NCBI RefSeq assembly: GCF_018070565.1
Contig: NZ_JAGPXL010000037.1
Location: forward strand, 1 to 64,000
Direction of reading: 5' to 3'
DNA length: 64,000 bases
Source: Streptomyces sp. B93
Lineage (GTDB): Bacteria > Actinomycetota > Actinomycetes > Streptomycetales > Streptomycetaceae
The stretch's first letter is position 1. The number at the start of each line of letters is the position of its first letter. The notes under the pieces were generated by a model. That model saw nothing but the letters and a program-made list of their open reading frames with translations. It did not search any database and was not told the DNA's origin. A program made the position numbers and the translations under genes. Shown here one piece after another: positions 17,707 through 20,153 of the stretch.

Positions 17707-17744
17707 GACCGGGGTTCCTTTCGTTTCGAGGTCGGGCCTGGCCG

Positions 17745-20153
17745 TCAACGGCGCTGGGCGCGCGCACGCGCGTCGCGCAGGAACCGCTCGTGGTTGGTCT
17801 TGTACTGGGTGGCCATACGGCTCTCCATGCCGCGCCGGGCGTTGAGCGCGTCGACGAAGCCCTGGCAGAAGTTGTTGACCTTGTCCGTGCCGCCCGGGAG
17901 GAGCTTGTAGTCGTTCGGGAGCACGGCGCCGCTCTTGGTGATCAGGCCGAGCTGGGCCGCCATGATCTTCGCCTCGGTGCCGCACAGGGCGTAGTTGGCC
18001 GAGTTCTTGCAGGTGGTGGAGGTGCCCCAGCGCTTGGTGAAGTAGTCGTTGAAGCGGCGCAGGCCACCGCCGCCCTGGTAGTGGTTGCGGACCGCGTCGA
18101 GGATGTTGGTGCCGCCGCGGACCGCGCGGGCGAGGAGGTAGCCGTCGGCGTCCTCGATGAGGTCGGTGAAGCCGAAGGAGGAGGAGACGCCCGGGACGGC
18201 GAGCTTGGCGTGGCAGAAGTCGAGCGGGTTGGCGTACTCCTCCTCGGAGTGGCGCCAGTCGGACCAGAAGGTCATGAAGTCGCCCGCCCAGCCGCCGACG
18301 TCGCCGCCGTTGGCCTCGCCGAGGTCGCCGGGGTGGTCGATGAGGACGTGGGCGTTGGCCGTGGCCATCATGTGCTCGGCGCCGAGCGAGTATCCGGTGA
18401 ACGGGTCGGTGAAGGACTTCTTCACCGACATGCCGTTGGAGTTGGCGTACTCGACGAAGTCCTCGTCGTAGCCGCCGATCAGGATCTTCCACTGCCAGTC
18501 GCCGTAGGCCCGGTGGCGGATGTACTCCATGACGAGCTGGCTGCGCCGGGTCCCGGTGGCGCCGTACGAACCGGCGAGGCTGTACAGCCTGCTGACGTAG
18601 TTGATGAAGTCGTCCGCCGGGCCCGCCTGGTCGTCGACCGAGGAGACGCCGGGGTCGGAGCCGGAGACGACGTCGCGGTCCAGGTCGAAGGTGTCCGAGC
18701 CGTTGACGACCTGGAACTCCTTGATCTGGTTGAACGACCAGTTCCCCGGCAGCGGGAAGCCGAGGTTGCCGGAGAAGCCCCAGGACATGCCGGAGACGAA
18801 GGAGTGCCGGGCGAACGTCTTCTCCGTGACGTTGATGCAGACGTTGCGGGACCCGTAGACGCCGTGGTTGTACTTCTTGCCCTGGCTGGCGAGCCCGGCC
18901 TGTACGCCGTGGAAGTAGGTGACGATGCCGTAGGGGTGGCCGTCGATCTCGTCCTGGGTGGCGTCGTAGTCGACCGCGAAGTAGATGGTGGTGCCGCGGT
19001 TGAACTTGTAGTTGGAGGCCAGCTGGTGGGCGTTGAGGGCGTGCTGGTAGCCCTGTGAGTAGGTGAAGTCGGACAGCTGGCGGGCGTTGTCCTGGTAGAT
19101 CGGGAAGACCTTCAGACCGGCGCCGAAGATGGTGGCCAGCTCGCCCGGCTTGATCTCCTTGTCGAGGGTGGAGCCGGGCGGGTCGTAGATGTAGCGGCCG
19201 ACGACGCGGTAGCCGTTGTCGTACAGCCACTTGGCGCGGGAGGCGGTGATCTCGAAGCGGGTGTCGCTGCCGGTCGCGGGGCGGTCCGGGTCGCCCATGG
19301 AGACCAGGAGCTGGGCCCAGGTCTGGTAGTCGCCGCGTTCGGTGACGGTCAGCTTGCTGAAGGCCTGGAAGTCCTTCACCCAGTTCTGGATGTCGCTGTT
19401 CCAGGAGCTGGTGAAGCTGGCGCGCGGGGTACCGGCACCGGGCGTCGGCTCGTTGAAGACGCAGCCCGCGGAGAAGAACTGCATGAAGATGCCGGAGGAG
19501 CCGGGGCCGACCGTGTTGGCCTTCAGCCCGGCCTGGGTGCCGGGGCCGAAGTTGCCGGTCGGGGTGAGGCCCAGCTCGTACTGGATGCCGTACATCAGCG
19601 ACTTCTGGACGTCGCGGGAGTAGATGCCGTCGCAGGGGCCGATGTTGAACTCGCTGCGGGTCCAGTAGCGGCCGTTGAGCCACCGCTGGATGCTGCGGAT
19701 CTTGTCGCTGCCGCCCGCGACGACGACGTACGCGTCCATGTTGAGGATCGCCTTGGCGATCTTGGCGTTGATGACGCCCTCGCCGCCGATGCCCATGTTG
19801 TCGCGCAGCTGTTCGACGGCGGCGCGGGTGACACCGGTGTACCAGCCCTCACTGCCGGGCTCGACGGCCCAGTAGCCCTTGCACCACAGGCCGTACTCCA
19901 GGACGGCGACGATGTTCCGGTTGGCGTCCCAGCCGAAGCCTATGTCGCCGAGCGCGGCGAACCTGGAGGCGGTGGTGGGGCCGAAGGAGGCGACGACCGG
20001 GCTGATGCCCAGCTCGTGCTGGAGCCCCATGATCAGCGAGTTCATGGTGGACCAGCCGGTCCGGCCGTCCTCGGGGCAGCGCACGTACCCGGAGACGTTG
20101 CCGTAAGTGGAGTTCACCCATTTCTGGGCTCTGAGGACCTGCTCATCCGCCAC
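17745..20153 (-). CDS. DUF1906 glycoside-hydrolase-like protein with peptidoglycan-binding repeats
   Basis: The protein has 802 residues from the GTG at 20153, which follows GGAAGGTGA; upstream in-frame codons lack a ribosome site. Two tandem modules resembling peptidoglycan-binding domains occupy about 7-115 and 150-270. A DUF1906 (Rv2525c-like, GH25-like barrel) domain spans about 296-500, starting at FEITASRAKWLYDNGYRVVG and containing IYFAVDYDA. The last 300 residues are an unidentified domain with several cysteines. No Sec or Tat signal peptide is present, although all recognised modules act on cell wall. The downstream gene encodes a Tat-exported M15-like protein. A role in wall remodelling is inferred from domains only. 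Confidence 0.8.
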   Translation of the reverse strand: MADEQVLRAQKWVNSTYGNVSGYVRCPEDGRTGWSTMNSLIMGLQHELGISPVVASFGPTTASRFAALGDIGFGWDANRNIVAVLEYGLWCKGYWAVEPGSEGWYTGVTRAAVEQLRDNMGIGGEGVINAKIAKAILNMDAYVVVAGGSDKIRSIQRWLNGRYWTRSEFNIGPCDGIYSRDVQKSLMYGIQYELGLTPTGNFGPGTQAGLKANTVGPGSSGIFMQFFSAGCVFNEPTPGAGTPRASFTSSWNSDIQNWVKDFQAFSKLTVTERGDYQTWAQLLVSMGDPDRPATGSDTRFEITASRAKWLYDNGYRVVGRYIYDPPGSTLDKEIKPGELATIFGAGLKVFPIYQDNARQLSDFTYSQGYQHALNAHQLASNYKFNRGTTIYFAVDYDATQDEIDGHPYGIVTYFHGVQAGLASQGKKYNHGVYGSRNVCINVTEKTFARHSFVSGMSWGFSGNLGFPLPGNWSFNQIKEFQVVNGSDTFDLDRDVVSGSDPGVSSVDDQAGPADDFINYVSRLYSLAGSYGATGTRRSQLVMEYIRHRAYGDWQWKILIGGYDEDFVEYANSNGMSVKKSFTDPFTGYSLGAEHMMATANAHVLIDHPGDLGEANGGDVGGWAGDFMTFWSDWRHSEEEYANPLDFCHAKLAVPGVSSSFGFTDLIEDADGYLLARAVRGGTNILDAVRNHYQGGGGLRRFNDYFTKRWGTSTTCKNSANYALCGTEAKIMAAQLGLITKSGAVLPNDYKLLPGGTDKVNNFCQGFVDALNARRGMESRMATQYKTNHERFLRDARARAQRR

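What the first reader, a model, noticed from the sequence alone, without database searches (positions are those of the whole stretch)
17745..20153. Cell-wall-type domains in an 802-residue protein with no signal peptide
Peptidoglycan-binding-like modules and a DUF1906 hydrolase-like barrel are expected outside the cell, yet the supported GTG start leaves a soluble N-terminus (VADEQVLRAQKW). Export by another route, release by lysis, loading into a contractile injection device, or action during sporulation from inside are all possible. The last 300 residues belong to no family I can name.
Basis: partly seen in the sequence, partly recalled or inferred. Interest (0 to 1): 0.65.

Follow-up and report, generated by a model that had tools for sequence, protein, structure and literature searches.

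The report
Leaderless cell-wall toxin with TelC-type warhead
This Streptomyces protein looks like an antibacterial toxin built to grip a rival's cell wall and destroy the lipid carrier of wall building; it is made without any export signal, as are all its close relatives examined, and its neighbour gene suggests, but does not prove, how it gets out.

Summary
The 802-residue minus-strand protein has peptidoglycan-binding modules, an Rv2525c-like barrel and no signal peptide, and its GTG start is conserved. The "nameless" last 300 residues fold like TelC, a lipid II phosphatase toxin (PDB 5UKH, Z 9.9; next match 4.9). This architecture was described in 2025 (PMC12419801).

What I add:
(1) Residues 3-511 are 38% identical to a leaderless protein of the Enterococcus Bac41 bacteriocin operon, assigned as BacA.
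(2) The same leaderless chassis carries at least three C-terminal domain types, or an N-terminal amidase-like domain, like a polymorphic toxin.
(3) Nearly every complete Streptomyces locus pairs it with an M15/VanY-fold protein. All 53 readable copies have twin-arginine signals, but the zinc ligands are mostly lost.
(4) A three-helix membrane gene normally lies between the two. It also occurs as orphans, as immunity genes do. This window has lost it.

Most likely it is an antibacterial bacteriolysin. Its export is open: Tat co-export with the M15-fold partner is my leading guess, release by lysis close behind. The injection-device idea found no sheath gene (inconclusive); sporulation is unsupported. 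Nothing has been tested at the bench.

The parts
17745..20153 (-). Leaderless bacteriolysin-like effector gene, 802 aa, GTG start
   Evidence: orthologues start at the same residue
20162..20167 (-). Ribosome-binding site GGAAGG, 8 nt before the GTG
   Evidence: a GGAAGG/GAAAGG/GAGAGG-type site lies at the same place in most relatives
19299..20147 (-). Peptidoglycan-binding-like modules, residues 3-285
   Evidence: PF01471 E 7.8e-9, two stretches; residues 202-286 align with part of SleC, VIA Z 7.3
18642..19280 (-). Rv2525c-like (DUF1906, PF08924) barrel, residues 292-504
   Evidence: E 3e-48; VIA-align Z 16.3 to 4PMQ Rv2525c over 189 residues; profile hit E 0.0035
17748..18632 (-). TelC-fold (lipocone) domain, residues 508-802
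   Evidence: AF2 pLDDT 92.9, pTM 0.89; VIA-align Z 9.9 to 5UKH TelC, 203 residues, next row 4.9
18144..18164 (-). Aspartate-rich motif D664-x3-D668-x-D670, invariant in 23 relatives; H594 and D625 also invariant
   Evidence: alignment A1; an Asp six residues after the helix-4 Asp is the TelC-specific mark given in PMC12419801
17032..17706 (-). Partner gene, 224 aa: Tat-type signal (LSRRSFVGA...) plus M15/VanY-fold domain with degraded zinc ligands
   Evidence: (PF13539 E 1.7e-4, 22.5 bits, just under its cut-off; 25.4 bits, just over it)
17707..17744 (-). Junction where relatives carry the ~145-aa 3TM gene; here only 38 nt remain (loss of about 465 nt)

Best explanation
The gene encodes a secreted antibacterial bacteriolysin of the BacA (Bac41) type. 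The N-terminal modules bind peptidoglycan of a target cell and the Rv2525c-like barrel probably binds or cuts glycan strands. The C-terminal TelC-fold domain then reaches the membrane surface and cleaves lipid II or related undecaprenyl carriers, stopping wall synthesis. Because TelC domains are not toxic in the cytoplasm, the protein can be made leaderless and folded without harming its maker. I think it most likely leaves the cell folded, carried through the Tat translocase by the Tat-signal-bearing M15-fold protein encoded just downstream (hitchhiker export); release by lysis of part of the mycelium is the close alternative. Shown by computation: domains, fold, leaderless conservation, gene pairing, Tat-type signal, loss of zinc ligands, interchangeable C-termini, orphan 3TM genes. 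Inferred: antibacterial action, lipid II as substrate, co-export, 3TM as immunity. The confidence given is for the antibacterial bacteriolysin; I give the Tat co-export step about 0.35 on its own.
For: TelC fold with invariant His, Asp-rich motif and +6 Asp (with PMC12419801); TelC cuts lipid II, needs an Asp-rich Ca site, and is toxic only when exported (PMC5555719). 37.6% identity over residues 3-511 to the leaderless protein assigned as BacA in the Bac41 operon of pMG2200; Bac41 kills through secreted BacL1 and BacA (PMC9951850). One leaderless chassis carries TelC, a second actinobacterial C-terminus (A2), C-termini ending in a hydrophobic segment (BacA, Terrisporobacter, Lactococcus), or an N-terminal amidase-like domain. 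The M15-fold partner lies beside 54 of 58 surveyed loci and all 53 with a readable N-terminus have RR signals, against 2-4 of 9 ordinary M15_3 proteins. Rv2525c itself is a Tat-secreted protein (PDB titles). Streptomyces MelC1 and tyrosinase are cited among hitchhiker-type cases (PMC4273604). Orphan 3TM genes: 21 sampled loci without chassis or partner nearby.
Against: No activity, location or interaction has been measured. Sequence profiles alone do not connect the domain to TelC and Foldseek ranks 5UKH only 11th with E 2. Leaderless relatives without the Tat partner exist: an S. clavuligerus plasmid copy, Curtobacterium, Propionibacteriaceae and all six Bacillota loci examined, so co-export cannot be universal. 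RR conservation may be inheritance, since the 53 partners are related. No bacL1-like co-effector was found in this genome (no positive control). This strain lacks the adjacent 3TM gene yet carries an intact effector gene.
Confidence: 0.6

Rival explanations
1. Same toxin, but released by cell lysis, colicin-M style: stored harmlessly in the cytoplasm and freed when some hyphae die; the Tat-exported M15-fold partner works on or binds the wall independently.
For: TelC is harmless in the cytoplasm (PMC5555719). Leaderless relatives without any Tat partner exist. Bacillota loci carry holin genes: 'phage holin family protein' in pMG2200 and BhlA/UviB in Terrisporobacter.
Against: No holin or lysis gene was recognised beside the Streptomyces loci; nearly every complete Streptomyces locus has a Tat-signal neighbour.
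Confidence: 0.3
2. The 3TM protein is a holin-like pore that exports the leaderless enzyme (type-10-secretion-like), not an immunity protein.
For: Small membrane protein encoded next to a leaderless wall enzyme and an M15-fold protein; holin-linked relatives in Bacillota (PMC9527704).
Against: It is missing here and in several class-B and amidase loci that keep the effector, and is found alone in many genomes without any effector nearby. Invariant Cys/Cys/Asn sit in a loop predicted outside, unlike a typical holin (topology inferred).
Confidence: 0.08
3. A producer-side enzyme that remodels the strain's own wall or recycles lipid carriers, for example during sporulation or autolysis, not a weapon.
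For: Wall-binding and hydrolase-like domains; the C-terminal fold is shared by many lipid head-group enzymes (PMC12419801).
Against: Patchy presence (26 of 101 genomes), plasmid carriage, interchangeable C-termini, orphan 3TM genes, and homology to a protein of the Bac41 bacteriocin operon.
Confidence: 0.12
4. Cargo of a contractile injection particle.
Against: No PF04984 sheath match in this genome; the gene neighbours are the M15-fold partner and, in relatives, 3TM. A divergent sheath family could be missed.
Confidence: 0.03

Closest known systems
prok-TelC + PGBD + Rv2525c-like TIM-barrel proteins with 3TM-CCDN and VanY genes in Actinomycetota (eLife 2025, PMC12419801)
   Same: Same domain architecture and same neighbour genes; this window belongs to that described group.
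   Different: The window lacks the 3TM gene. The paper calls the neighbour a VanY peptidase, but the metal ligands are mostly lost. The paper does not mention Bac41/BacA, and its passage on this group does not discuss the missing signal peptide or Tat. Here 3TM is seen to follow another C-terminus too and to occur as orphans.
Bac41 bacteriocin BacA, Enterococcus faecalis pMG2200 (assigned by operon order and length)
   Same: Leaderless; 37.6% identical over residues 3-511; part of an operon for a secreted bacteriolysin; a multi-helix membrane protein, assigned as BacI immunity, is encoded next to it.
   Different: Different C-terminus (ends in a hydrophobic segment); partners BacL1, BacL2 and a holin, none of which matched this window.
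TelC, Streptococcus intermedius LXG toxin (PDB 5UKH, PMC5555719)
   Same: C-terminal fold and Asp-rich motif.
   Different: TelC has an LXG N-terminus and leaves by type VII secretion; here there is no LXG domain and the N-terminus is wall-binding. Identity in the structural alignment is 16%.
Rv2525c, Mycobacterium tuberculosis (PF08924)
   Same: Barrel fold (Z 16.3).
   Different: Rv2525c is a small Tat-secreted protein with its own signal; here the barrel is one part of a larger leaderless protein.

Membership tests
prok-TelC (lipocone superfamily) | TelC fold | tested here: met
   VIA-align Z 9.9 to 5UKH over 203 of 295 residues, next 4.9; Foldseek alone weak, E 2
prok-TelC (lipocone superfamily) | Conserved Asp-rich motif with an Asp six positions after the helix-4 active-site Asp, plus conserved Arg downstream | tested here: met
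   D664/D668/D670, R700 and R708 invariant in 23 sequences; definition from PMC12419801. Spatial contact not measured.
prok-TelC (lipocone superfamily) | Ca-dependent lipid II phosphatase activity | not testable with these tools
   needs purified protein
LXG / type VII secreted toxins | N-terminal LXG domain | tested here: not met
   Pfam scan shows no LXG; the N-terminus is PG_binding_1-like
Rv2525c_GlyHyd-like PF08924 | Profile score over the curated cut-off and barrel fold | tested here: met
   164.9 bits against cut-off 27.2; Z 16.3 to 4PMQ
Bac41 BacA family | Homologous leaderless N-terminal chassis | tested here: met
   37.6% over residues 3-511, E 1.9e-100
Bac41 BacA family | Operon with bacL1, bacL2 and holin | tested here: not met
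   none match in the window; BacL1 search of the genome empty, without a positive control
Polymorphic toxin | Constant N-terminus with interchangeable C-terminal domains | tested here: met
Polymorphic toxin | Adjacent immunity gene | tested here: not met
   3TM gene present in most relatives but lost in the window; a divergent orphan 3TM lies elsewhere in the genome
Active M15/VanY peptidase (partner gene) | Zinc ligands HxxGxAxD and final His | tested here: not met
   window reads NHLSGTAVAIRP: first His kept, Asp replaced by Ala; across 53 partners the first His and the Asp are mostly lost and the final His often; 9 canonical M15_3 proteins keep the motif (the listing script required it)
Tat hitchhiker pair | Signal-less protein plus partner with twin-arginine signal | tested here: met
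Tat hitchhiker pair | Physical complex and Tat-dependent co-export | not testable with these tools
   needs pull-down and a tatC mutant
Contractile injection cargo | Sheath-type particle in the genome | tested here: inconclusive
   no PF04984 match

The most novel reading that the evidence does not exclude
A family of folded, leaderless bacteriolysins with exchangeable envelope-attacking domains uses two different exits: holins in Bacillota, and in Streptomyces an enzymatically dead, Tat-targeted M15-fold escort that carries the large toxin out by hitchhiking. This would be a new type of dedicated toxin export.
Probability: 0.3. Interest if true: 0.8.

Novelty: new variant of a known kind. Interest (0 to 1): 0.57.

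Why it matters
It turns an 'orphan' 802-residue Streptomyces protein into a testable antibacterial system and links a 2025 computational toxin class to an experimentally known bacteriocin, Bac41. It also poses a concrete question that one mutant can answer: how large leaderless wall-active toxins leave Gram-positive cells. The 3TM gene, if it is immunity, would explain why many Streptomyces keep it without any toxin.

Tried and rejected
Profile search of the C-terminus against PDB sequences: no relevant hit. Pfam on the C-termini: nothing. I first read 3TM as a possible holin; its absence from several effector loci and its orphan copies made immunity more likely. I first took the partner for an active VanY peptidase; the metal ligands are not kept. 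Upstream signal peptide: none. Kurushima 2016 on Bac41 immunity is not held. Literature on DUF1906 in Streptomyces: none held.

Full report
What is there. The ORF at 17745-20153 (minus strand) encodes 802 residues from a GTG preceded by GGAAGG at 8 nt. Pfam finds PG_binding_1 and an Rv2525c-like barrel. The full-length model is moderate (pLDDT 78, pTM 0.57), but its barrel matches Rv2525c at Z 16.3.

No signal peptide. The first 45 residues hold no hydrophobic stretch. In relatives the start aligns to the same residue, and in L010, L011, L024, L035, L038 and L040 an in-frame stop lies within about 5-10 codons upstream. Leaderlessness is therefore a family trait, not a mis-called start. A different DUF1906 protein in the same genome has an ordinary signal peptide (L104).

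The last 300 residues. Modelled alone with 14 sequences, residues 508-802 give pLDDT 92.9 and pTM 0.89. Among the chains Foldseek ranked, VIA-align puts TelC (5UKH) first with Z 9.9 over 203 residues; the next row has 4.9. Foldseek itself ranks TelC only 11th with E 2, and a sequence profile does not reach it. Residues invariant in 23 relatives include H594, D625, D664, D668, D670, R700 and R708. D664 and D670 are six apart, the mark given for TelC domains in PMC12419801. TelC cleaves lipid II, uses an Asp-rich Ca site, and harms cells only from outside (PMC5555719). PMC12419801 already describes TelC fused to PGBD and an Rv2525c-like barrel in Actinomycetota, next to a 3TM protein and a VanY-like gene.

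Link to Bac41. Plasmid relatives are common in Enterococcus and Lactiplantibacillus. In pMG2200, which carries Bac41 (PMC8532689), the homologue is a leaderless 726-residue protein; a holin-family gene and a small hypothetical gene lie upstream and a multi-helix membrane protein gene downstream. By order and length it should be BacA; only bacL2 is named in the record, so this assignment is inference, partly from memory of the Bac41 papers. It matches the window protein at 37.6% over residues 3-511. Bac41 acts through secreted BacL1 and BacA (PMC9951850). PMC12419801 does not mention Bac41.

A modular toxin. The chassis (residues 1-507) carries: a TelC domain in the window, in most of the full-length Streptomyces relatives, and in E. 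faecium, L. plantarum and Curtobacterium (by sequence similarity along the C-terminus); a different 230-270-residue domain in 14 aligned loci, two of them in this genome (A2); C-termini ending in a hydrophobic segment in BacA, Terrisporobacter and Lactococcus; or no C-terminus but an N-terminal amidase-like domain (L055, L056; the amidase reading is from motifs only).

The partner gene. An M15/VanY-fold gene was found at 54 of 58 surveyed actinobacterial loci (a few are duplicate records); one copy is broken, and all 53 with a readable N-terminus have a twin-arginine signal. The four without it are two records of one broken chassis copy, a chassis fragment, and a Propionibacteriaceae contig. 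Outside that set, S. clavuligerus and Curtobacterium copies also lack it. Of 9 ordinary M15_3 proteins only 2-4 have an RR motif. The zinc site HxxGxAxD is mostly lost in the partners; the window keeps the first His and lacks the Asp. The partner is therefore more likely a binding protein than a peptidase.

The 3TM gene. Most relatives have a ~145-residue three-helix protein between effector and partner, with invariant Cys, Pro-Leu, Cys and Asn (A5). It follows both TelC and A2-type effectors. In the genus sample 41 of 101 genomes match 3TM and 26 match the chassis; 21 have 3TM without a chassis match. Twenty-one sampled orphan loci, two of them in this genome, have no chassis or partner nearby. 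The weaker matches may be other membrane proteins. Orphans fit an immunity gene better than an export part. In the window the gene is gone: the partner starts 39 nt after the effector, against about 430-600 nt where 3TM is present, and comparison with the 90%-identical locus L032 shows a clean loss. An orphan 3TM elsewhere in this genome, 68% identical to another system's 3TM, might substitute.

Mechanism. Most likely this is a secreted antibacterial bacteriolysin. Export is unproven. Tat co-export by the partner is suggested by the paired genes, the constant RR signals, the degraded active site, and the Tat export of Rv2525c; Streptomyces MelC1 with tyrosinase is cited among hitchhiker-type cases (PMC4273604). 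Two of the Bacillota relatives sit beside holin genes instead, and holins have been proposed as exit routes where Tat is absent (PMC9527704). Lysis remains a strong alternative.

Verdict. The class was described in 2025; the Bac41 link, the C-terminal exchange, the Tat partner with a lost zinc site, the orphan 3TM genes and the 3TM loss here are additions that I did not find in the papers held.

Noticed in passing
window 17707-17744: The 3TM gene present in nearly all TelC-type relatives is cleanly missing between effector and partner.
   Followed up: yes
L073 3334-4029 (own genome C55): Orphan 3TM gene, 68% identical to the 3TM of another system, with no chassis or partner nearby.
   Followed up: yes
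L054 (own genome C47): Class-B paralogue whose N-terminal PG-binding half is not in the same frame as barrel and C-terminus; probably a frameshifted copy.
   Followed up: partly
L104 (own genome C34): Another DUF1906 protein with an ordinary signal peptide and C-terminal PG-binding repeats, beside a canonical M15 peptidase with intact metal ligands.
   Followed up: partly
L051, L049, L099 (Enterococcus and Lactiplantibacillus plasmids): Leaderless chassis with TelC-type C-terminus on plasmids; in E. faecium followed by a single-helix protein with an ectodomain, a candidate immunity protein.
   Followed up: partly
L098 4928-8229 (Terrisporobacter plasmid): Leaderless chassis gene beside a BhlA/UviB holin and a sigma-like gene, similar to the sigma factor plus holin set of Bcn5 bacteriocin loci.
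   Followed up: partly
A2 alignment (L002, L017-L028, L003): Second actinobacterial C-terminal domain with a DSSTGxGQI motif reminiscent of lytic transglycosylases, but no family hit; the Glu after the invariant Trp is not fully conserved.
   Followed up: partly
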